A DNA stretch of 11,595 nt from NCBI GenBank assembly GCA_023250585.1, contig JAHFAK010000021.1, positions 1 to 11,595 of the forward strand, given 5' to 3'. Both the position numbers and the translations under genes were made by a program. Each line of letters opens with the position of its first letter. Position 1 is the stretch's first letter. Positions 1-11,595 of this stretch are shown here, piece by piece. This stretch comes from Deltaproteobacteria bacterium (lineage in GTDB: Bacteria; Bdellovibrionota_F; JAHFAK01). The notes beneath the pieces are model-generated. The model was not told the origin of the DNA and ran no database searches. It was given only the letters and a program-made list of their open reading frames with translations.

Positions 1-1722
1 CCCCTTGAAGTAGACAACAAAAATCCCGATCTCTATCGCGTTGCTGTTACTTCATTTACAAACGAATGCGATGTTACGCCCTGTGGAACTCTTGAGCCAA
101 AAGAAAAAGATGCATCAGAAACTGCGTCTGAAACTCAAGTGTATATTTGGAAAACTGTTATGGGCGAAACGGGAAATGATAATGTATTGTACGATCGCTC
201 ACGCCCTATTACTTTCAAATGGAAATACACCAATTCAAATCAAGAATGTGATGATGTGAGTTTTACGAAAATTATAACTCCGATGAATATCATTCCTCCG
301 GCGGGAAAACTCGTCATTGCATCGGGTACATTTGATTCAGGAAAGACAATTCCATTACCGGAAGCACCTAATTACAGCATCAACAAAAATATGTGTTTTG
401 GAATTCATGCTCCACAAGAAATGAGATCACCTAAATATAGAGCAGATACCGAAGATGATTGTTCTTATTGGAGTGAAGTTGGTCACGCAGCAGGAACCAT
501 ATGGACTATTTATTTAGGCGTAGAAGCATTTGTAGGGCTTCTAGTCCTTCTCCCGGGATTGGGATGGGTTGGAGGTCTTATAATAACTATAATAGCAACA
601 GCAGTTGCTGTTGTGGCCACCATATTATTTGCATTATATTGCCTTACAGCCACTATATGGGGTGGGTGTGTTTGTAATGACGACGTCGCATTCAGATTCG
701 GTCACCATCTCAAAGGATTTGGTTATGATACTGCTATTTCTCAAACCTACTATATAGCCCCAAATGATCAATCCAATTTTTGGTGGGATACAACAAGCAG
801 TAAAACTGAAGCTATAAAAGAATTCCCTCCTGAAGGATACAAAATTAACTATATATCCATTTGTTACCCAGATGCTAAGGATTCGAGTATTATCGGGGCA
901 GAACAATTTAAAGATAGACTTGTCCCTAGCGTAGATCCAGCTTCTTATCCCTATGTCTCAGAAAATTATACACCGCAAGAGCTAGGGCTCATTAAACCAA
1001 ACGAATTCATATTATTTGCTGATAACCATCTTTTTCCTGAGCAAACTCCACTTGGAATAGCAGAAAAAACAGCGGAAGGAGAATCGGCTGACAATTATGA
1101 ATTTGGATATCTTAATGTACTCTCATATATGCTTTCCCCACGATTTCATTTTGATGAATCAACATTTCGAATGGGTATAAATAATGGATTCGCCAATAGT
1201 GTATATAGACCCTTTTTCCTTTTTAATAACGAACCTTATAAATCTGAGGACAATGAATGGATTTGGTATTTTGATGCTCCCAATTACAATGATAGCTCTA
1301 CGATTGCAGGATTTATAGCGAATGAATATTTAATTGCGATTAATAAGAAATATAATAAGTATTTGAGAGTGATTGCCAGCGATATAGACGTATTAACATC
1401 AGGAGGTGTTGTTACGCTGCCTGAAGGATTCACTTCATCTGAATGCCATTATATACCAAGCATATTGAAGATTAATACCAAAGAACTCTACGATCCAAAA
1501 GAATCTGAATTTACGTGGGGTCCTAAAATTGACGTTGTGAAAAATGATACGGATAGTTCTCTCAACGATAATCAAATCAAGATACATTCGTGCTTGCAAA
1601 AATGTACTCAAAACGGGCCGTGTGATTGGGTGAACGATTGTGTTGATTCAAATATTAACCCGGAATTCTATATCCACAATGCGGTGAGCCTCTTAATGAT
1701 ATGCTCGAAATTTAAAAATTAA
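1..1722 (+). CDS. Large Cys-containing surface protein, paralog 1 (5'-partial; family not recognised)
   Basis: The frame is open from base 1 to the TAA at 1720-1722, giving 573 residues of C-terminal sequence; the true start lies upstream. The ATG at 139 is internal, because homology to the two downstream paralogs already begins before it. Landmarks shared with them are SFTNEC...PCG near the window edge, YDRSR at nt 190, a PPAG motif near nt 296, CFGIHAPQEMRSP near nt 394, FWW at nt 778-786, and a C-terminal CLQKC (nt 1591-1605) followed by CDWVNDC and a final ICS. By alignment to the second paralog about 400 N-terminal residues are missing, presumably including a lipoprotein signal peptide. 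It differs from both paralogs by a hydrophobic insert at about nt 460-678. I do not recognise the family. Secretion and surface location are inferred from the paralogs, which have clear lipoboxes. Confidence 0.9.
   Translation, partial: PLEVDNKNPDLYRVAVTSFTNECDVTPCGTLEPKEKDASETASETQVYIWKTVMGETGNDNVLYDRSRPITFKWKYTNSNQECDDVSFTKIITPMNIIPPAGKLVIASGTFDSGKTIPLPEAPNYSINKNMCFGIHAPQEMRSPKYRADTEDDCSYWSEVGHAAGTIWTIYLGVEAFVGLLVLLPGLGWVGGLIITIIATAVAVVATILFALYCLTATIWGGCVCNDDVAFRFGHHLKGFGYDTAISQTYYIAPNDQSNFWWDTTSSKTEAIKEFPPEGYKINYISICYPDAKDSSIIGAEQFKDRLVPSVDPASYPYVSENYTPQELGLIKPNEFILFADNHLFPEQTPLGIAEKTAEGESADNYEFGYLNVLSYMLSPRFHFDESTFRMGINNGFANSVYRPFFLFNNEPYKSEDNEWIWYFDAPNYNDSSTIAGFIANEYLIAINKKYNKYLRVIASDIDVLTSGGVVTLPEGFTSSECHYIPSILKINTKELYDPKESEFTWGPKIDVVKNDTDSSLNDNQIKIHSCLQKCTQNGPCDWVNDCVDSNINPEFYIHNAVSLLMICSKFKN
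460..678 (+). other. Hydrophobic insert in paralog 1, possible two-helix membrane hairpin
   Basis: About 73 codons lie between the conserved segment ending SPKYRADTEDD and the segment resuming at DVAFRFG. In the other two paralogs these segments are joined by only a few residues. The insert contains two apolar runs, about nt 496-570 and nt 571-660, separated by a PGLGW turn and rich in Ile, Val, Ala and Leu. It is bounded by Cys codons at nt 460 and at nt 667 and 673. The reading frame and flanking motifs are intact, so this is an in-frame insertion rather than a frameshift artefact. Two membrane-spanning helices are the simplest reading. A hydrophobic loop that packs or inserts after secretion is also possible. 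Confidence 0.75.
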
Positions 1723-1863
1723 AACGTTTTCATTCTTTACAATTAAAACCCCCTTTAGTATTAAGTTTTGATGGAATAAAATACCATATAACTAGACTCA
1801 AAAATTCTAGAAAAATTATTCGAAAAGGATCACGTAAAAAAGGCTATTGAAAGATCATTAATC

Positions 1864-2718
1864 ATGAAAATAATAAACAAAATTCTTGATGGTAAAGCAG
1901 TCAGTCAGCAGATTAAAGCTGAAATTACAGAAATAGTTTCAAAACTATCAAGTCCTCCAAAGTTGTCAGTTATCCTTGTGGGCAACAACTTTGCATCAAG
2001 TGTTTACGTAAAAAATAAAAGCCAAGCCTGCATTGTATGTGGTATTCAATCAGAGGTTATTACATTAGATGAAAATATTTCAGAAGCAGAACTTCTCAAA
2101 AAAATTCATGAGCTCAACCAAGATAACCACACTCACGGAATCTTAGTACAGCTTCCATTACCAAAACAGATCCGGGAAGATAGAATCATTGAAAATATTG
2201 ACCCACGCAAAGATGTTGATGGTTTTCATCCCCTCAATGTTGGGCATCTCTTTCTCAAAAAGGCAATGCTCGAACCCTGTACTCCGGTGGGGGTAATTGA
2301 AATACTCAAACGATATGCTCTACCAATTGCAGGAAAACATGTTGTCATCATTGGACGAAGTAATATTGTTGGTAAACCCTTAGGTATAATGTTTCTGAGA
2401 GAGAATGCAACAGTGACGTATTGCCATTCAAAAACGAGAGACCTCCCTTCCGTTGCACAGACAGCAGACATTCTTATTGCAGCTATTGGGAAAGCACAAT
2501 TTGTCACTGATGAATTCGTTAAAACAAATGCAGTAATTATCGATGTTGGAATTAATCGACTCCCCAATGGAAAATTAGCAGGCGATGTTGATTTTGAAAA
2601 AGTATCCCCAAAAGTATCTGCAATTACACCCGTGCCAGGAGGTGTAGGCCCGATGACCATTGCAATCCTCCTTAAAAATACGCTGAAAGCATATCAAAAT
2701 ATCATGCACAAAAAGTAA
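1864..2718 (+). CDS. folD: FolD, bifunctional methylenetetrahydrofolate dehydrogenase / methenyltetrahydrofolate cyclohydrolase
   Basis: A cytosolic enzyme that interconverts 5,10-methylene-, 5,10-methenyl- and 10-formyl-tetrahydrofolate using NADP, supplying one-carbon units to purine and formyl-Met synthesis. The 284-residue length is normal. Hallmarks are the YxxxK catalytic motif (Tyr48, Lys52), VQLPLP, the DVDGFHP loop, PCTPVG, the Rossmann motif GRSNIVGKPLG, IDVGIN, and the C-terminal PVPGGVGPMT. The start is chosen at ATG 1864 because it gives the usual short N-terminus before LDGKAV. The Shine-Dalgarno sequence is weak (only AAAG-like bases upstream), and no clear promoter is visible in the 141-nt spacer from paralog 1, which has only short AT-rich inverted repeats such as AAAACGTTTT at 1721-1730. 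An inverted-repeat structure starts 3 nt after the stop. All key residues are present, so it should be functional. Its position between two members of a lipoprotein family is odd for a housekeeping gene. Confidence 0.97.
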   Translation: MKIINKILDGKAVSQQIKAEITEIVSKLSSPPKLSVILVGNNFASSVYVKNKSQACIVCGIQSEVITLDENISEAELLKKIHELNQDNHTHGILVQLPLPKQIREDRIIENIDPRKDVDGFHPLNVGHLFLKKAMLEPCTPVGVIEILKRYALPIAGKHVVIIGRSNIVGKPLGIMFLRENATVTYCHSKTRDLPSVAQTADILIAAIGKAQFVTDEFVKTNAVIIDVGINRLPNGKLAGDVDFEKVSPKVSAITPVPGGVGPMTIAILLKNTLKAYQNIMHKK

Positions 2719-2721
2719 CAG

Positions 2722-2864
2722 CTCAGTTAATGGGGGAGTTAGAGGGTACGTATGTTCCCAAAAAGAATTTCTATCGAGCGCGCTTACCCCGTTCTTAATA
2801 GTTTTATGGAAGCGACGTCGAGATACATACTTTTTGAGAACATACGCACACCCTAATAACTGAG
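2722..2864. repeat. Inverted-repeat element immediately 3' of folD (MITE-like or 3'-UTR stem)
   Basis: The ends are exact inverted copies: CTCAGTTA at 2722-2729 and TAACTGAG at 2857-2864. Further in, 2749-2765 and 2830-2846 pair at 16 of 17 positions (CGTATGTTCCCAAAAAG against CGTATGTTCTCAAAAAG when the right arm is reversed). Between these, the AGGGT-type segments at 2741-2748 and 2847-2855 also correspond, with a few extra bases in the left arm. The central 64 bases are unpaired. This looks like a small non-autonomous element with terminal inverted repeats of about 35-45 bp. I see no clear target-site duplication and no transposase. It could also end or stabilise the folD transcript. Confidence 0.6.
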
Positions 2865-3107
2865 AAGGTGTGAAAAAATCAAGGAGAGCTCCATTTTCTG
2901 AAAAAGAGCGATAGGAAACTGAAATGTCCAAATCGACTGTCATTGCGAAAACCTGAAGGGTTTGAAGCAATCTCTTCCTACATATGCACGATTACGAGTT
3001 TATCCCGAACCTGCTTGAGATTGCTTCGTCGGACAAGAAGACGTGTCCTCCTCGCAATGACAGGTGAGGGACCACGTTCGAAATCTGATTCTTTCACACC
3101 TTCTGAG
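2860..3107. repeat. Second inverted-repeat unit, 21-bp arms enclosing the CATTGCG repeat
   Basis: Arms at 2860-2880 and 3087-3107 match at 19 of 21 positions in inverted orientation (core AGAAGGTGTGAAA). They bracket about 206 bases that contain the CATTGCG palindrome as a nested element. The left arm overlaps the right end of the preceding inverted repeat by a few bases (CTGAG), so the two structures are adjoined or share an end. The interval between the arm and the nested palindrome (2881-2936 and 3064-3086) does not pair. The arms could be ends of a mobile element into which the CATTGCG repeat was inserted, or conserved flanks of one composite repeat. Confidence 0.55.
2937..3063. repeat. 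CATTGCG / GCAATCTC dispersed palindromic repeat
   Basis: The outer arms CTGTCATTGCG (2937-2947) and CGCAATGACAG (3053-3063) are exact inverted copies. The inner arms GAAGCAATCTC (2964-2974) and GAGATTGCTTC (3017-3027) are also exact. Between outer and inner arms each side holds its own small hairpin: AAACC/GGTTT (2949-2953, 2959-2963) and GGACA/TGTCC (3031-3035, 3044-3048). The whole 127 bp could fold as a branched cruciform or RNA. The wording TGTCATTGCGA...GAAGCAATCTC is a repeat motif I know to be widely dispersed in several bacterial lineages, where it is often mis-annotated as short ORFs. Other copies are likely elsewhere in this genome. Confidence 0.8.
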
Positions 3108-3125
3108 GGATTACCAAAAACAGTA

Positions 3126-3140
3126 ATGTAAATTTTACAT
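3126..3140. promoter_or_regulatory. 15-bp perfect palindrome, possible operator
   Basis: ATGTAAA-T-TTTACAT is a perfect inverted repeat with a single central base. It sits 9-23 bases upstream of a consensus TATAAT, which is where a -35 element would normally be. There is no recognisable -35 hexamer there, so the palindrome may bind a regulator that activates or represses transcription of the downstream lipoprotein pair. In AT-rich DNA a 15-bp palindrome may also arise by chance. Confidence 0.35.
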
Positions 3141-3148
3141 ATTTACGA

Positions 3149-3154
3149 TATAAT
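3149..3154 (+). promoter_or_regulatory. Candidate -10 box (TATAAT) of a distal promoter for the lipoprotein pair
   Basis: A perfect TATAAT lies about 155 bases before the ATG of paralog 2. No sigma-70-type -35 is found 16-18 bases upstream; that space is filled by the palindrome at 3126-3140. If used, transcription would start near 3161 and give a leader of roughly 145 nt. The assignment rests on the hexamer and its position only. Confidence 0.35.
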
Positions 3155-3241
3155 TGAAGGCTTATGTCCGCTCTACAGTTCCAACAGCATTTATATTTAT
3201 TAATTATTTCAATTAGTTACCTTTTATTCTTTTTCCTCATA

Positions 3242-3270
3242 TTGGCATAAGGCTTGCTCTATTTAATTAT
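3242..3270 (+). promoter_or_regulatory. Candidate proximal promoter (TTGGCA - 17 nt - AATTAT)
   Basis: TTGGCA at 3242-3247 matches the -35 consensus at 5 of 6 positions. AATTAT at 3265-3270, after a 17-nt spacer, matches the -10 at 4 of 6. Transcription would begin near 3277, inside the hairpin just upstream of the gene's ribosome binding site, leaving a leader of about 30 nt. It is an alternative or addition to the distal TATAAT at 3149. Confidence 0.35.
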
Positions 3271-3271
3271 T

Positions 3272-3300
3272 AGAGGAGCTCGTACTCCTCTCCAAAGGAG
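3272..3300 (+). promoter_or_regulatory. Mutually exclusive leader hairpins over the ribosome binding site of paralog 2
   Basis: AGAGGAG (3272-3278) pairs perfectly with CTCCTCT (3285-3291) around a 6-nt loop. The same CTCCT (3285-3289) can instead pair with AGGAG (3296-3300), the Shine-Dalgarno sequence, around a 6-nt loop. Upstream pairing frees the ribosome site and downstream pairing hides it. The true site AAGGAG (3295-3300) is 7 nt from ATG 3308 and decides that start over the upstream in-frame ATG at 3254, which has no such site and would displace the signal peptide. A regulatory role is inference; if transcription starts near 3277 the upstream strand would be lost. Confidence 0.4.
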
Positions 3301-3307
3301 TAAAATT

Positions 3308-6112
3308 ATGCAGAAAAAGCTATTAATCATTTTTTTATTACTGAGCAGTATAGCTTTAGTTAACTGTGGAGGTCGTGGTAGCACAGAAAAAAATGAAGAA
3401 GGCGATCCTTCTGATGAAGTTGTGATTCCAAAACTTGCCATCATTTTGACATTTCCCCCTGATAGCGCTGATAGTGGCTATTACGATATTACGTATACCT
3501 TACAAAATATTCCTAAAGCTCAAGGACCATTTACAAAAGTTGCTTATTCAAAATCAGAAGCATCAAGCCATGAGTTAACAGATATCAGTGTTTCAGGAAC
3601 CCGAAATATCAGTGTAAAAATTGGAGATGCCAATGGTGTTGGAATATTTCAAGGACAAGGAGTAATCAGTAAGACAAGTACTACGGTAACAATAACGCTT
3701 GAAAAAATTTCTCCTCATGATGCTGACCCATCTGAGTGTGCTGCATTTAGCGCAAAAATTAAGAAGTTAACTGCAGATAAAATAATTGTCGATCCAAATG
3801 CAAGCATTGCTATAAAATCAGACATCGAAAATACGGCAAGTAACGACATAGTCTATGCATGGAGTACACAAAAAGGAACCGTAAATCCTACCGATGATCA
3901 AGATACAACATTCTCCGCGCCAAATTCAACGGTTCAAGAAGTCGTCGTTGTAACACTTAAAATAAAGCCTAAAGATGCTGGTGAGGTCAGTTGCGATGAT
4001 GAAAAAATCAGCATAACAGTGAGGCCGCCTACTACTACGCCTCCTCCACCTCCGGGAGACGCAACAATACAAGTGACGGTAGCAGCATCAAAGAGCATCA
4101 ATGGGATACCTACGCTTACCCCTATCTACCCTAAAGCAAATTTTGAAGCAACGGTAACAAGCGCTGTAAGCCCACTCAGCTATGCATGGTTTAAAGACGC
4201 AACACAAGAAACATCCATGGGTACTGCGCAAAATGCTTCGTATACTGCTCCAGCCGACATATTCACGAAGCTCCAAACTGAACATCCCAATGAACTGTAT
4301 TGCCTTGAAGCTAAATTCAAACTTACCGTTATGCCCCTCAATAAATCTTCTGAAGAAAAATCAGTATGGATCTGCAACCAAGACATCGAAATGCTCGGGG
4401 TCTGTGATGCGGTAGCAATCACTATGAAACCATTTGATTCAGAAAATATCACTGATGATGCGCAGTTGACATATACAATAAGCTTAGCAATCAACAACCA
4501 AAATTCAGAGGTATATACGCCATCGATCACTGAATTTAAATCAACGTGTGGATCTGAAACCTGCGGGCTATTAACCCCGATAGTTGAAACTGTACCGACA
4601 GCTGAAACTGAAGAATATTCATGGAATACGACCGATGATTCAGAAAAAAATATTCTTTATAATCGATCACGTGAAATAACTTTTTCATTGAAATACACAT
4701 TGCTTAATTTTGAATGCACTCCCGTTGCTTTTGATTATAAAGTAATTTCGCAAAATATTATTCCGCCAGTTGGAAATCTAGTATTTCACAGCGAAAAAAT
4801 TCTTGCAGGACAAACCATTCCTCTCCCGAATATCTTAAAAGATACAAATGCGAATGAGATAGATAAAAAATGTTTTGCGCTCTATTCCCAGGCAGAAGCA
4901 CGAACACCGAAACAAGATATAGATGAAATAGATTCAAAGTTCCGTTATGGATTTAAAGTAGAAGCTTCTGGCTTTAATGACCCATTAGTACCCTATTTTT
5001 GGATCGGTGAACATTCATATTACTATGCCACTGACAAAGGACCTGCTTATTGGTGGAATTATATGGATGGATCTTCTACTCCTTATATCAAAGATACATT
5101 AGCCGAAGAGTCGCCACCGATTAACTATGATTTTTATACTCTTTCAGCATGTTTCGATAGTAGTAATGATAGCTATTATGTTAAACATGAAGCTCCGGTA
5201 ATAAATCAATCTATTACGATAGATGAGGTTACTCACTATGCATATTATCTTCCAAAAGATGAAGAATTAGTTTATTTTCTGCCAGAAGAATTCTTGATAT
5301 ATTACACAAATAACATTCTTCCAGGAGATGAAATTGGACCATCAACAGTATCGACGGGCGATAATCAAGCTACTACTACCGACAACTTTGATTTTGGATC
5401 ATTATATACCTTAAATTATATGCTGACTCCTCTCCTCGATTTTGATGAAGGAGATTACGTAGATGAGTCTGATACCTGGGGTATACGCAATCTCTCGGTA
5501 ACTATTAATGATCAAAACTTATATTTGCCACAGGTTTATTATTCAAGGAGTGGTCATAGTGAAGCATGGTGGCCGCAGGATGCGCGAAGCTCTTCTGATT
5601 ACCCACAGCTACCTATAACTGAAGAAAGCGATGACTATGCAGGTTTTCGTGCCGAGTATTCATTAATTGGAATCGATAAAAAATACACGAACCATATTAA
5701 AGTTTTCAATACAACCATCAACTTACTCTCTGCTGAAAAAGATTCTCAGGCATTGTTGGCCGATGCACAAGAATTTGATCTAGCCAAAGAATGCTCCATT
5801 CTACCGTTTATCAACGAACTCACGATGAGTCCAAATCATCCGGGCGCCAATGATCCATTTGAAGATAATTTCACCTATAATTACAAAGTATCGGTAAACA
5901 ATGTTACCAGTAATTCTCTCGATGTTAACGCTTGTTTACAAATGTGTGTTGGAGAAGATGAAGGCGGCGAAGATAGAAATACCTATAGCAAAGATTGCGT
6001 AGATCCTAAAGTAGAGCCAGATTATTACAGTGCTGCTTCCGTTAATCTTCTCGTCATCTGTTCGCATTTTTATTACCCAGAAGAAAGAGAGCCAGAACAG
6101 GTCAACAAATAA
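3308..6112 (+). CDS. Large outer-membrane-type lipoprotein, paralog 2 (family not recognised)
   Basis: The product is 934 residues and begins MQKKLLIIFLLLSSIALVNC, a type II signal peptide with lipobox LVNC and acceptor Cys20 followed by Gly, which favours outer-membrane sorting. After the anchor comes a beta-rich segment containing DSGYYDI, then an Ig/PKD-like segment (about residues 140-238) with a YAWST...TFSAP pattern. A Pro-rich hinge with five consecutive Pro lies at 240-250 and is followed by a second Ig-like segment containing YAWFKD. The C-terminal half, shared with paralog 1, has YNRSR at 451-455, PPVG at 486-489, YWW at 581-583, CLQMC at 876-880, and KDC and ICS near the end. It is acidic and aromatic-rich, with no catalytic motif that I can identify. 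The start is fixed by AAGGAG 7 nt upstream. It sits 9 nt before paralog 3, so the two are probably co-transcribed. An adhesin, receptor or structural surface role is possible but unproven. Confidence 0.92.
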   Translation: MQKKLLIIFLLLSSIALVNCGGRGSTEKNEEGDPSDEVVIPKLAIILTFPPDSADSGYYDITYTLQNIPKAQGPFTKVAYSKSEASSHELTDISVSGTRNISVKIGDANGVGIFQGQGVISKTSTTVTITLEKISPHDADPSECAAFSAKIKKLTADKIIVDPNASIAIKSDIENTASNDIVYAWSTQKGTVNPTDDQDTTFSAPNSTVQEVVVVTLKIKPKDAGEVSCDDEKISITVRPPTTTPPPPPGDATIQVTVAASKSINGIPTLTPIYPKANFEATVTSAVSPLSYAWFKDATQETSMGTAQNASYTAPADIFTKLQTEHPNELYCLEAKFKLTVMPLNKSSEEKSVWICNQDIEMLGVCDAVAITMKPFDSENITDDAQLTYTISLAINNQNSEVYTPSITEFKSTCGSETCGLLTPIVETVPTAETEEYSWNTTDDSEKNILYNRSREITFSLKYTLLNFECTPVAFDYKVISQNIIPPVGNLVFHSEKILAGQTIPLPNILKDTNANEIDKKCFALYSQAEARTPKQDIDEIDSKFRYGFKVEASGFNDPLVPYFWIGEHSYYYATDKGPAYWWNYMDGSSTPYIKDTLAEESPPINYDFYTLSACFDSSNDSYYVKHEAPVINQSITIDEVTHYAYYLPKDEELVYFLPEEFLIYYTNNILPGDEIGPSTVSTGDNQATTTDNFDFGSLYTLNYMLTPLLDFDEGDYVDESDTWGIRNLSVTINDQNLYLPQVYYSRSGHSEAWWPQDARSSSDYPQLPITEESDDYAGFRAEYSLIGIDKKYTNHIKVFNTTINLLSAEKDSQALLADAQEFDLAKECSILPFINELTMSPNHPGANDPFEDNFTYNYKVSVNNVTSNSLDVNACLQMCVGEDEGGEDRNTYSKDCVDPKVEPDYYSAASVNLLVICSHFYYPEEREPEQVNK

Positions 6113-6121
6113 GAGAGATAT

Positions 6122-9100
6122 ATGAATATACAAAAAAATTTATTCACTTTACTATTATTACTCATGAGCGTAACTATGCTGGGCTGTAGTGGCTGCGGCA
6201 GAAATCATGATGAGAAAGAAGCAAATGATGAAATCGCAGGAGAAGAGATCACATTTCCTGAATACAAAGTAAGCTTAGCATTTCCTGCAGAAGCTATCGA
6301 TAGTGGCTATTACAATATATCAATTAAAATTGGAGATAAAGGTCCATTTACTCGCGAAGTACATTCTCTCAAAGATGCTACAGGGCCTCATGTGCTGAAA
6401 GATATCAAAACAAAAAATTTAGCAACTATTGATGTAAAAGTTTTCGATGAAAAAGTTATAAAAATATTTGAGGGAACGGGAGTTGTTACAAAAGACATCC
6501 CCGAAGTAACGATTAGTTTAACTGCCGTGTCTGCTGAAGACCAAGATGAACAAGCCGCCGCATGTAAGGAATTTACCGCAAATATTTCGAGCTTAACGAT
6601 TGTCAAATTAGATCCTGAGCCCGGAGAAGTAATTGATGTAAGTGCGGTTATTGATAATCCCAATAAAAGTGAAATCCATGTTGAATGGAGTTCAAGTGCA
6701 GAAAATGGAAGTTTTGGAGATGTTTCAAAACTCAATACCACATTTACCACTCCGAGTTCGGTTGCCACAAATCCCTATGCAATAAAATTAAAACTTAAAA
6801 TCGGACCGATTGATAGCGATGGATTCTGCAAGGAAAAACCACAAAACATTAATGTTATTCAGAATGATGATAATACTCCATCGGATGAAATTAAACTTAT
6901 CATTACTACTCCTGATGGAACGTATAGCGACCATCCAGCTGTAGAACTTAATGAATCAACTCCAGAAAAAATAATTAAACTCGAAGCTGTTGCAAAAAAT
7001 GGGGTAACTTATAATTGGGAAGAAGATGGAATTCTTATAGGTTCAGATTACAATAAAAAGGAATGGACAAAAAATATTTCCTGGGATCCAAACAAATCCG
7101 AATTCGATGGTTGCTACATTATAAAATACAAAGTCACTATTCTCGATAAAGATAACAAAGAAATTGGAGCTCCAACGGAAGATTTGTATGTGTGTCCATT
7201 CTTGCCCGATCCTGCAAGCCATTGTAATGCGGTGACGCTTCATCCCCCTGTTTATACTCCTGTTAAAGGGGAAGAATCGCATCTCAAATATCTTGTGTAT
7301 CTTTCGGTCGAAAAAAATGGAGATGAAAACGACGCTACAGAATTCTTAAAAAATTCACGTGAACCACTTGTAGATATTCCTGAAGAAACAATTGATGGTC
7401 AGTATAAACTCAAAATAGATTCATTCGAAATTTCATGTCCATTAGGAGATGAATCGCAAACCAAATGTGGAAATTATAGTTATAATGATTTTATCAATAA
7501 TCAATTCAATTTTGTTTGGGAAACCGAAACACCCGCTGAGTATAGAGATACAGAAGGAGATTTTCTTATTTATAATCGATCGAGACAAATTACTACTTAC
7601 TACAAATATAACGTTGATGGAGATCTCTGCCCACCGGTTGCTTTTAAAGAATATGCTCTGAATATTGCTCCGCCAGTTGGAAGGCTTAAATTTATTGCGA
7701 ATATCATGAAGTCAGGAGAATGGATCCCTTATCCAGAACATTTACAAAATATATCTGGCAAGAATGATCAATTCGATTGCCGAACGAAAGTTGAAAATAA
7801 TGGACCGTGGAAAGATGAAAATGAAAAAGAATGGTGTACCGCAATTCTTGAAGGCATGGAAGAAAGTACGAAAGAACAATGCTTTGGTATTGTCAGTCCC
7901 GGAGAATTTCGTTCGCCACGCTATAAAGTAAAATCTGATACGCTCGAAACATTTGCATATGGATTTAAACTAGAAGGCTATGGTATGCGACAAAATATAC
8001 GACAGTCATTTTATTTAACGACGCCAATAAATTATGGAGATAATGGCTATTGGTGGTATGCCGGCGATCCATTTACAAAAGATATAAGTTCTATTCCCGG
8101 TGATTACTCCATCTATTACCTTGGCGCTTGTTATGATTTCGACGACAAAGCATCTGATTATGTCGCTGTACAAAAATCTGAGCCAAGTACTATTGTTGAC
8201 AAAAATACTCCTGAGGAATCATTGCTTCTCTATAAACCCGGCGAATTCTTTCTTATGGAAGATAATCATCTCGAAATATTTGATACACTTATTACCGATA
8301 ATAATAACACATCAGAATATGACACCAATGATATGCAACTCGCCTACTATTATACACCGGTTTATATGAAAACCTATCCGCTTATTGGATTTGATTCAGG
8401 TTATGCAGGAAATGATGATTATGGATATTTAAACAATTACATCGAATGTACGGAAGCTGAACTTCCGGAATTTTATGCATATTATGCGAACGAAGAAAAT
8501 CAAGGAATATACGAATGCGATCTTTCCAATCCTGATTCACCAATCGTCAGAATTTACAGTCCAGAAATTCAACGAGACGGCACCGATGAAGACGTAGGCA
8601 AACGTCGATCGAGTATAGACTTTAGAGCAATTCAAGCAGGATTTGGTTTTGCGAATAAATATAATAATCACGTTATTACTGTTGAGCTTGATGAATCAAA
8701 TTTAAAAAACTCTCAGATTTTAACATTCCCTAAAACTCTAACAGATAAAGGTTTTACAAAAGACGAATGTTTTATTCTTCCTCAATTACTTAATGTCATT
8801 ACAGAGCCGGCTTATAATTATGTTCCGGATAAAAATGCCTACTCATGGAATTATAAATTGGAAATGGCAACAAATAATGATGATCCATTTGCGAAAGAAT
8901 CCGCGATAACATTAGAAGACAATGAAATTGCAATGAGGACCTGTATCCAAAAATGCGGAATATCTTCAAATAATACCGGAGGAAACGTAGATCACACAAA
9001 AGATTCATGCGACTGGGTAAAAGATTGTATAGCTCCGGGAAGCTATGACGATATCACTCCCGAACCTGACTATTATAAAGAAAACACCGCAAGTGCTATT

Positions 9101-9145
9101 GTTGTTTGTTCAAAATTCTATGATCCAAAGACAGTGAGCCCTTAA
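6122..9145 (+). CDS. Large outer-membrane-type lipoprotein, paralog 3 (family not recognised)
   Basis: The product is 1007 residues. The N-terminus MNIQKNLFTLLLLLMSVTML leads to a GC lipobox with acceptor Cys22 followed by Ser. The order of segments matches paralog 2: DSGYYNI beta segment, Ig-like segment with a VEWSS...TTFTTP pattern, a linker, a second Ig-like segment (YNWEEDG), then the shared C-terminal half with YNRSR from Tyr484, PPVG from Pro517, CFGI from Cys587, YWW (Trp644, Trp645), and a terminal CIQKC...CDWVKDC...VCS. It lacks the Pro hinge. Two extra Cys-pair loops are present, around residues 553-585 (Cys553, Cys572) and 776-799 (Cys776, Cys799). Its ribosome site is weak (AGAGAG) and overlaps the stop codon of paralog 2, suggesting translational coupling. 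Both genes are in the same frame, separated by one TAA and three sense codons. Function is unknown. Confidence 0.93.
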   Translation: MNIQKNLFTLLLLLMSVTMLGCSGCGRNHDEKEANDEIAGEEITFPEYKVSLAFPAEAIDSGYYNISIKIGDKGPFTREVHSLKDATGPHVLKDIKTKNLATIDVKVFDEKVIKIFEGTGVVTKDIPEVTISLTAVSAEDQDEQAAACKEFTANISSLTIVKLDPEPGEVIDVSAVIDNPNKSEIHVEWSSSAENGSFGDVSKLNTTFTTPSSVATNPYAIKLKLKIGPIDSDGFCKEKPQNINVIQNDDNTPSDEIKLIITTPDGTYSDHPAVELNESTPEKIIKLEAVAKNGVTYNWEEDGILIGSDYNKKEWTKNISWDPNKSEFDGCYIIKYKVTILDKDNKEIGAPTEDLYVCPFLPDPASHCNAVTLHPPVYTPVKGEESHLKYLVYLSVEKNGDENDATEFLKNSREPLVDIPEETIDGQYKLKIDSFEISCPLGDESQTKCGNYSYNDFINNQFNFVWETETPAEYRDTEGDFLIYNRSRQITTYYKYNVDGDLCPPVAFKEYALNIAPPVGRLKFIANIMKSGEWIPYPEHLQNISGKNDQFDCRTKVENNGPWKDENEKEWCTAILEGMEESTKEQCFGIVSPGEFRSPRYKVKSDTLETFAYGFKLEGYGMRQNIRQSFYLTTPINYGDNGYWWYAGDPFTKDISSIPGDYSIYYLGACYDFDDKASDYVAVQKSEPSTIVDKNTPEESLLLYKPGEFFLMEDNHLEIFDTLITDNNNTSEYDTNDMQLAYYYTPVYMKTYPLIGFDSGYAGNDDYGYLNNYIECTEAELPEFYAYYANEENQGIYECDLSNPDSPIVRIYSPEIQRDGTDEDVGKRRSSIDFRAIQAGFGFANKYNNHVITVELDESNLKNSQILTFPKTLTDKGFTKDECFILPQLLNVITEPAYNYVPDKNAYSWNYKLEMATNNDDPFAKESAITLEDNEIAMRTCIQKCGISSNNTGGNVDHTKDSCDWVKDCIAPGSYDDITPEPDYYKENTASAIVVCSKFYDPKTVSP

Positions 9146-9333
9146 GAAAAAAACAACCACGCTGCTTAGTGAAACTTTTTCATACCATTAAAAAAATTAT
9201 TCATTTTCTGTGCCATATATACTAAATTTATTTTACAACTAATTAATATCATTAATCTATTTTTCAATAAATTTTGGTACCTTTTTTGCACTTAATTATT
9301 AATGTAATGCATAATTTTAACCCGGAGTAACCT

Positions 9334-10683
9334 ATGAAAAATTATTTTTATGGACTATCTTTATGTAGTGTAATTTTATTCTTTACTGCATGCGGGGAAA
9401 ATATTGAAACTCCCCAAATTGGAACTGAAGAAGAAATGCTAAAAGAGAAAAATTCTCTGACGGCTTCGGTAATGAAAGATAGTTTCGTACAGAGAAGTAA
9501 TCTTACAAAATTAAATATTACACCAGACCACAATGTTCTTTTGCTTAATCTTTTTAACGATACGATTATTCATACAATGCGAAGTCGTGTAGAAATAAGA
9601 GACAATGGCTTTAGCTGGTTTGGAAAAATAGAGGGTATTGAAGGAAGTGATGTTATTCTGGTGGTAACTCATGATGGCCATATTACCGGAAATATTAACG
9701 CAGTTACTCACTTCTATCATATTCAACCATCTCATGATGGGCTTCATCTTATTACCGAAGTTGATCGAGGGAAATTTAATGATCACGATGGAGAACGAAA
9801 GACCCCACGACGATCTCCTCCTAAAGCAATGTCGAGTTTACCCTGTCAACCAAATGGCGTTGATGATGATCTTGAAAACTGTGCATTGGTAAATGATTTA
9901 CTTACTGAAGATGATGCGGGTGAACACGGTAATACGGGAAGTACAGGCAACACAGGAGGAAGTCCTCCTTCAAATTATACCGTATCAATCCTTATTGTGT
10001 ATTCTGATGATGCAGAACAAGACTCTAATGGAAATATGGCCTCGGAAGCTCAATTAGCGATCGATGAAGCTAATCAAGCTCTCCTTAATAGCATGGTAAA
10101 TACGGAGAAACAAAAAGTGTCATTTAAACTCGCAGCTATTAAATCCATTTCATATACAGAAACAGGCGATGCTAGTAAAACGCTCAATGATCTTGAAAAC
10201 CCTTCTGATGGTAAAATAGATACCATTCATCAATGGAGGGATTATTATAAAGCAGATATCGTAAGTTTTTGGGTAAAAAATATTGATTGGTGTGGACAGG
10301 GCAATCAAATGCCTTCTCTTTCAAGCTATCCTTCACGAGCATTTAATGTGGTAATGCGGTCCTGCGGGACAAATTACTATACGTTATCTCACGAAGTTGG
10401 TCATAATATGGGGCTCAATCATGATCAGTATGTAAATGATAGTGATGATGCAACTTACTATGCCTACGGGTTTATTCAGAAAGGTTCTTTCAGAACAATG
10501 CTTGCCTATCCCGATGAATGTTATGATTCAAATAAAAATTGTCCAAAAATTCTTTATTTCTCTAATCCAACCGTCCGTGTGAATGGACTGCCTACTGGAA
10601 TATGGGATACTAAAAATAAAATCTATTCATACAATGCAGATGTAATACGAAATTCATTTCCTATTGTAGCTGCATATAGGTAG
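9334..10683 (+). CDS. Lipoprotein-anchored reprolysin-like zinc metalloprotease (metzincin, M12 type)
   Basis: The product is 449 residues, with a lipoprotein signal ending FTAC (Cys20, then Gly). A propeptide-like region (about residues 50-150) has the pattern GFSWFGKIEGIEGSDVILVV, typical of bacterial reprolysin-like precursors. A low-complexity Gly/Asn/Thr/Ser linker (about 202-214) joins it to a catalytic domain from about residue 215 (VSILIVYSDDAE). The zinc site HEVGHNMGLNHD runs 353-364, with His353, Glu354, His357 and His363 as expected for metzincins. The Met-turn is RTMLAY with Met389, followed by a Cys-bounded segment and YFSNPTV, as in family members. GGAG lies 6 nt before the ATG. 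The 188-nt upstream spacer is AT-rich without a convincing terminator or promoter. All catalytic residues are present. The substrate is unknown; processing of the adjacent surface lipoproteins or of external proteins are both plausible. Confidence 0.93.
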   Translation: MKNYFYGLSLCSVILFFTACGENIETPQIGTEEEMLKEKNSLTASVMKDSFVQRSNLTKLNITPDHNVLLLNLFNDTIIHTMRSRVEIRDNGFSWFGKIEGIEGSDVILVVTHDGHITGNINAVTHFYHIQPSHDGLHLITEVDRGKFNDHDGERKTPRRSPPKAMSSLPCQPNGVDDDLENCALVNDLLTEDDAGEHGNTGSTGNTGGSPPSNYTVSILIVYSDDAEQDSNGNMASEAQLAIDEANQALLNSMVNTEKQKVSFKLAAIKSISYTETGDASKTLNDLENPSDGKIDTIHQWRDYYKADIVSFWVKNIDWCGQGNQMPSLSSYPSRAFNVVMRSCGTNYYTLSHEVGHNMGLNHDQYVNDSDDATYYAYGFIQKGSFRTMLAYPDECYDSNKNCPKILYFSNPTVRVNGLPTGIWDTKNKIYSYNADVIRNSFPIVAAYR

Positions 10684-10684
10684 C

Positions 10685-10864
10685 AATCATCTGTTATATG
10701 ATATTCTTGAATTAAACAATAGCTTTGATGAGCAGGGGAATTTAATGAAATTGAGAAGAAAATTTGATACTCGTATTGAACCCCATCCTTTTAGCCAATT
10801 AGATCTTAAAAGAAAAAATCCCTTTATCGCCGAAATTTTAAAATCTTCAATGAAAATTAACTAA
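10685..10864 (+). pseudogene. C-terminal remnant of a small nucleotidyltransferase-domain protein
   Basis: This frame is open from just after a stop at 10667 and ends at TAA 10862-10864. It contains LMKLRRKFDTRIEPHPF followed by NPFIAEILKSSMKI. That pattern, RIEPHPF then NPxxxEIL(K)xxxKI, is the C-terminal signature of roughly 100-residue MNT/KNT-type nucleotidyltransferases related to DNA polymerase beta. The N-terminal catalytic half (GSxxxG...SDIDL) is absent here and upstream. Recognisable homology begins only about 40-45 residues before the stop. An ATG at 10745 with an AGGGG site 6 nt upstream could still start a 39-residue peptide, so an expressed micro-protein is not excluded. A decayed gene is the better reading. 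It lies 45 nt before gcvT. Confidence 0.65.
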
Positions 10865-10909
10865 TTTTACCTTTACAAAACATATCCCCTATATTAATTT
10901 CGCAAGGTT

Positions 10910-11595
10910 ATGAGTAAAACTACTCTCTATGACGAGCATATAAAATGTGGCGCAAAGATGGTTCCTTTTGCTGGATTTCTTATGCCTATAAAATATTCCG
11001 GTGAGCTTGTTGAACATAAAAATGTCCGTGAACACGCAGGAATTTTTGATGTAAGCCACATGGGAGAAATCGAAATTATAGGGAAAGATGCTCTCGCTTT
11101 TTGCCAGAAAATCACCTGCAATGATGCAAGCAAACTCACGCCAGGAAAAATTCAGTACACAGTTTTATGCAATGAAAAAGGCGGTGCAGTTGATGATTGC
11201 ACGCTGTATATGTTTTCCGAAAATCACTACATGTTTTGTGTCAATGCAGCTAATATAGAAAAAGATTATTTATTCATGAAAGCACATAAATTTGGTTCGC
11301 TAGAAATAATCAATAAAAGTAACGACTATGATCTCTTAGCGTTGCAAGGACCTCATTCAGAAACTATTCTACAAAAAATTATCGATATCCCATTAAGAAA
11401 TTTAAAATCTTTTTGGTTTACGCGGGGAAAAGTCTTTAAGCAAGACATAATTATTTCTCGAACTGGATATACCGGCGAAGATGGATTTGAACTCTATATT
11501 CATCCAAGCGAATCAAAAAAATTATGGCAACTCCTTCTTGAAAAAGGACAAGCTGAACAGCTTTTACCAATAGGACTCGGCGCAAGAGACACATT
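10910..11595 (+). CDS. gcvT: GcvT, aminomethyltransferase (T protein) of the glycine cleavage system (3'-partial)
   Basis: Cytosolic enzyme that takes the aminomethyl group from lipoylated H protein and transfers it to tetrahydrofolate, releasing ammonia and forming 5,10-methylene-tetrahydrofolate. The first 228 residues are present. The N-terminus MSKTTLYDEH and the segment MVPFAGFLMP are typical. Other family marks are IFDVSHMGE, the Asp-Asp pair 95-96 in AVDDCTLY that corresponds to the catalytic Asp region, LLALQGP, GYTGEDGFELY, and LGARDT at the window edge. About 130-140 residues should continue beyond the window. A short AAGG site lies unusually close, 2 nt before the ATG. Its product is the substrate pool handled by FolD, but the 8-kb separation argues against a common transcript. 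Other gcv genes may follow downstream. Confidence 0.96.
   Translation, partial: MSKTTLYDEHIKCGAKMVPFAGFLMPIKYSGELVEHKNVREHAGIFDVSHMGEIEIIGKDALAFCQKITCNDASKLTPGKIQYTVLCNEKGGAVDDCTLYMFSENHYMFCVNAANIEKDYLFMKAHKFGSLEIINKSNDYDLLALQGPHSETILQKIIDIPLRNLKSFWFTRGKVFKQDIIISRTGYTGEDGFELYIHPSESKKLWQLLLEKGQAEQLLPIGLGARDT

What the first reader, a model, noticed from the sequence alone, without database searches (positions are those of the whole stretch)
1..9145. Undescribed tandem family of three very large, Cys-patterned surface lipoproteins
Three proteins (about 930-1010 residues where complete) share an ordered motif set: SFxxxC..CG, Y[DN]RSRxIT, PPxGxL, CFxxxxxxExR[ST]P, a WW aromatic motif followed by a xxYxIxYxxxCYD-like stretch, and a terminal CxxxC...DC...[IV]CS signature. 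Two have unambiguous lipoboxes. I cannot assign the shared C-terminal half (about 550 residues) to any known family. Tandem paralogs with conserved Cys scaffold and diverged surface suggest a diversifying surface antigen, adhesin or receptor set.
Basis: partly seen in the sequence, partly recalled or inferred. Interest (0 to 1): 0.7.

Follow-up and report, generated by a model that had tools for sequence, protein, structure and literature searches.

The report
Three related lipoproteins, unknown C-terminal half
One poorly known bacterium carries three clustered, distantly related, large secreted lipoproteins whose front halves look like ordinary immunoglobulin-type stalks and whose cysteine-patterned back halves match nothing in the databases searched, so this is a real but lineage-specific surface-protein family of unproven function.

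Summary
Pairwise identity is 27-40%, and 15 cysteine columns are invariant where about 0.01 are expected by chance. P1 is cut by the contig end, but its 5' end lies on contig C155 with a 120-base exact overlap, so all three are complete at 934-1007 aa. P1 and P3 have canonical lipoboxes; P2's (LVNC) is atypical. There are only three copies in the genome: sucCD/ndk lie beyond P1, and gcvT lies after P3 and a reprolysin lipoprotein.

Nothing in Pfam, NCBIfam, PHROGs, PADLOC, PDB sequences, IMG/VR, GTDB contigs, plasmids, phages or several hundred sampled genomes is a credible relative, including the one other genome held from the phylum.

Structure prediction gives two moderately confident beta-sandwich/Ig-like N-terminal domains, like intimin, invasin or PKD stalk modules. 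The C-terminal 550 residues gave no usable model (pLDDT 34), so a new fold is neither shown nor excluded. 'Diversifying antigen' is not supported: divergence is even along the proteins and there are no population data.

Best explanation: envelope-anchored lipoproteins with an Ig-like stalk that presents a disulfide-stabilised binding domain. It is a lineage-restricted family of a familiar kind.

The parts
1..1722 (+). P1, C-terminal 573 aa of a ~958-963 aa lipoprotein; its 5' part is on contig C155 (L004:~10060-11334)
   Evidence: 120-base exact contig overlap, lipobox IFIAGC on L004
454..693 (+). P1-only insert, including a ~60-residue strongly hydrophobic stretch flanked by Cys residues (DDC...GGCVC), absent from P2 and P3
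   Evidence: (19-residue windows up to 2.76 on the Kyte-Doolittle scale)
1864..2718 (+). folD (methylenetetrahydrofolate dehydrogenase/cyclohydrolase), housekeeping gene between P1 and P2
2715..3118 (+). two dispersed miniature repeats between folD and P2: about 2715-2864 (palindromic, ~150 b) and 2854-3118 (~265 b, 28-b terminal inverted repeats)
3308..6112 (+). P2, 934 aa, signal peptide with atypical lipobox ALVNC
3416..3715 (+). P2 domain D1 (residues 37-136), predicted beta-sandwich, best structural neighbour 4q1z (DUF4876)
   Evidence: pLDDT 70-86; Z 8.8, rmsd 3.0, 87 aligned
3740..4039 (+). P2 domain D2 (residues 145-244), predicted Ig/PKD-like beta-sandwich, Cys at both ends
   Evidence: pLDDT mostly 70-80; intimin 1f00 Z 8.7, rmsd 2.9, 84 aligned
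4403..6109 (+). P2 C-terminal half with the Cys motif set; no assignable family, no usable structure model
6122..9145 (+). P3, 1007 aa, canonical lipobox TMLGC; starts 9 bases after the P2 stop
9334..10683 (+). lipoprotein metzincin protease (reprolysin M12B, HEVGHNMGLNHD), neighbour, possibly functionally linked
10910..11595 (+). gcvT (start of the glycine cleavage cluster), marks the right edge of the surface-gene group

Best explanation
P1-P3 are paralogous envelope lipoproteins made by local gene duplication. Each is exported by Sec, lipid-anchored at its N-terminal Cys, raised on a stalk of two or more Ig-like/beta-sandwich domains (residues ~37-245, possibly continuing to ~490), and ends in a ~450-residue disulfide-stabilised domain that most likely binds a ligand or surface outside the cell (adhesin or receptor). 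Shown: homology, motifs, signal peptides, Cys conservation, copy number, gene order. Predicted: the first two stalk domains. Inferred: outer-membrane location, disulfides, binding function.
For: N-terminal signal peptides with Cys in all three, canonical lipobox in two. AF2 of P2 residues 21-509 gives two beta-sandwich domains at pLDDT ~70-86, with neighbours intimin, invasin, RbmA and PKD/S-layer domains at Z 7-9. Segments 140-250, 246-366 and 362-490 resemble each other weakly (hhalign E 0.006 and 0.02), as repeated stalk modules would. There are 14 invariant non-lipid Cys, and the genome encodes three DsbA-like (Thioredoxin_4) proteins. TolC-like and MacAB-like genes next to P1 suggest a two-membrane cell (read from the translations). 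No catalytic signature was found.
Against: No direct evidence of surface exposure, binding or expression. Ig-like stalks also occur in enzymes, S-layer proteins and protease inhibitors. The C-half model is unusable (pLDDT 34), so its role rests on context. P1 has a long hydrophobic insert that a simple stalk-plus-head model does not explain.
Confidence: 0.45

Rival explanations
1. They are structural envelope or matrix components (S-layer-like or biofilm scaffold lipoproteins) rather than ligand-binding receptors.
For: Structural neighbours of the N-half include RbmA (Z 8.3), SbsB/SbsC S-layer domains and an archaeal S-layer PKD domain.
Against: Only three divergent copies; no S-layer family match; Z 7-9 is the background range for Ig-like folds.
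Confidence: 0.2
2. They are substrates, partners or inhibitors of the adjacent reprolysin lipoprotein, forming a surface protease module (for example for prey or host matrix degradation).
For: The protease (9334-10683) has an intact HExxHxxGxxHD site and a lipobox, and follows P3 on the same strand. Top Foldseek rows for P2 include complement/alpha-2-macroglobulin proteins.
Against: 188-base gap to the protease; no thioester CxEQ motif in any of the three; the complement hits reflect a common beta-sandwich (TM 0.16 or less by query for those rows); no co-occurrence data, because the only other genome of the phylum carries neither gene.
Confidence: 0.15
3. They carry a hydrolase or glycan-active domain in the C-half, such as a remote GH9-like enzyme; weak profile hits fell on endoglucanases.
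For: PDB 3h7l endoglucanase at E 0.59 and two proteins that read as GH9 endoglucanases at E 0.003-0.006.
Against: The match to the genomic proteins is only ~43 residues around a YWW motif; the GH9 DAGD-type motif is absent; the low-confidence C-half model is strand-rich with few helices, whereas GH9 is an (alpha/alpha)6 barrel (own knowledge).
Confidence: 0.05

Closest known systems
Intimin/invasin-type Ig-like stalks (1f00, 1cwv)
   Same: Tandem Ig-like beta-sandwich modules on an outer-surface protein; structural neighbours of P2 residues ~145-244
   Different: Intimin/invasin are anchored by an outer-membrane beta-barrel and end in a C-type-lectin-like tip (own knowledge); P1-P3 are N-terminally lipidated and have no recognisable barrel or tip
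DUF4876 protein of Bacteroides (4q1z, BT_1938)
   Same: An N-terminal beta-sandwich resembling P2 residues 37-136 (Z 8.8, rmsd 3.0, 87 aligned)
   Different: Only ~87 residues align at 13% identity; no Pfam match; the rest was not aligned
Bacterial alpha-2-macroglobulins (4u4j, 4rtd)
   Same: Proteins built from many beta-sandwich domains, lipoproteins in many bacteria (own knowledge)
   Different: Much longer, usually with a thioester motif; P1-P3 are 934-1007 aa and lack CxEQ

Membership tests
Bacterial lipoproteins | Signal peptide ending in a lipobox with invariant Cys | tested here: met
   P1 (IAGC) and P3 (MLGC) meet PS51257; P2 (LVNC) has the aligned Cys but Asn at -1 and does not meet the pattern
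Ig-like-stalk surface proteins (intimin/invasin/PKD type) | Tandem Ig-like beta-sandwich domains | tested here: inconclusive
   Two domains predicted at pLDDT 70-86 with Z up to 8.8, at the edge of background; no Pfam Big/PKD match
Intimin/invasin family | N-terminal outer-membrane beta-barrel | tested here: not met
   No barrel or inverse-autotransporter Pfam/NCBIfam match; the N-terminus is a lipoprotein signal soon followed by D1
Alpha-2-macroglobulin | Thioester CxEQ motif and A2M Pfam domains | tested here: not met
   No CxEQ in P1-P3; no A2M/MG family match
Glycoside hydrolase family 9 | Catalytic DAGD-type motif and GH9 profile | tested here: not met
   No Pfam GH9 match and no motif; weak hits limited to a YWW stretch
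Diversifying (antigenically variable) surface antigens | Variation among strains or excess divergence in exposed parts | not testable with these tools
   No other genome with the genes was found; paralog divergence is even along the protein

The most novel reading that the evidence does not exclude
The 450-550-residue C-terminal half is a previously undescribed Cys-rich fold that acts as the binding head of a lineage-specific receptor/adhesin set, and in P1 carries a membrane-inserting hydrophobic hairpin.
Probability: 0.2. Interest if true: 0.5.

Novelty: new member of a known kind. Interest (0 to 1): 0.3.

Why it matters
If the C-half proves to be a new binding domain, it would add a family from a phylum for which the collection used here holds only two genomes. 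As it stands, it is one more lineage-restricted surface lipoprotein family, with a clear boundary (P1 to reprolysin) for future work.

Tried and rejected
Sequence families: Pfam, NCBIfam, PHROGs and PADLOC gave only sub-threshold noise for P1-P3. PDB by sequence (14, 48): only an endoglucanase at E 0.59, rejected. Relatives: GTDB contigs by peptide pattern (13), IMG/VR (22), plasmids and phages by tblastn, own phylum (19), 192 genomes with A1 (12), 386 genomes with A2 (24) and 385 genomes around another centre with A1 (62; these sets overlap): no relative. The weak rows were inspected: two endoglucanase-like proteins and other unrelated proteins. The pattern-based scans (13, 18, 22) only find close relatives; the FolD scan meant to name the host failed because it chose variable peptides (18), and no 16S rRNA was found in the genome (17), so the host phylum was not named. 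AF2 of the C-half failed (pLDDT 34); its fold-search rows (best Z 7.7, best Foldseek E 0.03) come mostly from its first ~117 residues and are not used as evidence. The idea that the C-half diverges faster than the N-half was tested and not supported. A literature search with four terms found nothing relevant. A search for laminin-G domains in the two phylum genomes led nowhere.

Full report
What is there. The window is bases 1-11595 of contig C61 (23,289 bases) of a 2.24-Mb, 164-contig draft genome, 96.7% complete. Open frames in order: P1 (1-1722, open at the 5' end), folD (1864-2718), P2 (ATG at 3308, stop at 6112), P3 (6122-9145), a reprolysin-type metalloprotease lipoprotein (9334-10683) and gcvT (10910 on). 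Glycine cleavage genes continue beyond the window.

Completeness of P1. A search of the genome with the first 100 codons found a second place, the last 120 bases of contig C155, identical to the first 120 of the window. The frame is open across the join, giving a protein of ~958-963 aa with signal peptide and lipobox IFIAGC|TGG. Further upstream on C155 lie genes that read as sucC, sucD and ndk on the opposite strand, then an efflux set (TolC-like, MacA/MacB-like). A profile of the three proteins finds no other copy in the genome at E up to 1.

Homology and motifs. All six motifs are in all three proteins in the same order. Pairwise identity over aligned positions is 27-40% by half. Fifteen Cys columns are invariant: the lipid Cys plus fourteen. 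About 0.008 are expected by chance given the number of Cys. P2 has 16 Cys in all, so its whole Cys set but one is conserved. A further CG cysteine is probably shared but shifts in the alignment. The genome encodes three DsbA-like proteins, so disulfides are plausible, not shown.

Not diversifying on this evidence. N-half and C-half identities are 39.8/32.5 (P1-P2), 30.1/31.2 (P1-P3) and 26.7/32.5% (P2-P3), with no contrast beyond circular-shift controls. The genes were not found outside this genome, so within-species variation cannot be measured.

Structure. AF2 on the C-half with three rows failed (pLDDT 34). On P2 residues 21-509 it gave mean pLDDT 54.6, with two domains mostly at 70-86: residues ~37-136 and ~145-244. 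Their nearest solved structures are Ig-like/beta-sandwich modules: DUF4876 4q1z (Z 8.8, rmsd 3.0, 87 aligned) for the first; intimin 1f00 (Z 8.7, rmsd 2.9, 84 aligned), invasin and RbmA for the second. These Z-scores sit at the edge of background for such folds. The Foldseek rows are a spread of beta-sandwich proteins at TM about 0.12-0.20 and name no family. Residues ~490-934 remain without fold or family.

Search for relatives. Family libraries, PDB sequences, GTDB contigs by pattern, IMG/VR, plasmids, phages and whole-genome profile searches gave no credible relative. The phylum has only one other held genome, in the same class, so absence mostly reflects how thinly this lineage is sampled. 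It is not strong evidence that the family is unique.

Gene order. In that other genome folD is directly followed by gcvT (L022: folD 8638-9498, gcvT from about 9495), and the protease is not found. In the window, P2, P3 and the protease lie between folD and gcvT. The simplest reading is that the surface genes were inserted or expanded next to folD in this lineage; with two genomes, loss in the other cannot be excluded. The folD-P2 spacer is made largely of two high-copy miniature repeats, so rearrangement here is plausible but not shown.

Mechanism. I take the most likely role to be envelope-anchored binding proteins: lipid anchor, Ig-like stalk, disulfide-stabilised head. Shown: anchor signal, homology, Cys pattern. 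Predicted: stalk domains. Inferred: outer-membrane surface location (no Asp at +2 in any of the three, by the E. coli rule, from my own knowledge), disulfides, ligand binding. Rivals are a structural matrix role and a module with the neighbouring protease.

Verdict. A genuine, well-defined orphan family of a familiar kind. The claim of a new domain stays open because the C-half could not be modelled.

Noticed in passing
window 2715-3118; ~40 other places in the genome (L024-L028 and others): The folD-P2 spacer consists largely of two dispersed miniature repeats: a ~150-b palindromic element (a dozen or so copies, mostly 82-90% identical) and a ~265-b element with 28-b terminal inverted repeats (about 28 copies, 81-97% identical). 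They look like MITEs; several contigs begin at them.
   Followed up: partly
window 1864-10910 versus L022:8638-10598: folD and gcvT are adjacent in the only other held genome of the phylum but separated here by 8.2 kb of surface-protein genes.
   Followed up: partly
window 454-693: P1 alone carries a ~60-residue hydrophobic insert between Cys residues, inside the otherwise conserved C-half; possibly a membrane-inserting hairpin.
   Followed up: partly
window 9334-10683: Lipoprotein metzincin with HEVGHNMGLNHD, nearest NCBIfam model Mep72 (biofilm-associated protease, far below its cut-off); not found in the other genome of the phylum.
   Followed up: partly
L004:9561-9710: Upstream of P1 are short inverted repeats of the GTCATCCCGCGGCTTGACCGCGGGATCC and GTCATTCCCGCGAAAGCGGGAATC type, interspersed palindromes.
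   Followed up: no
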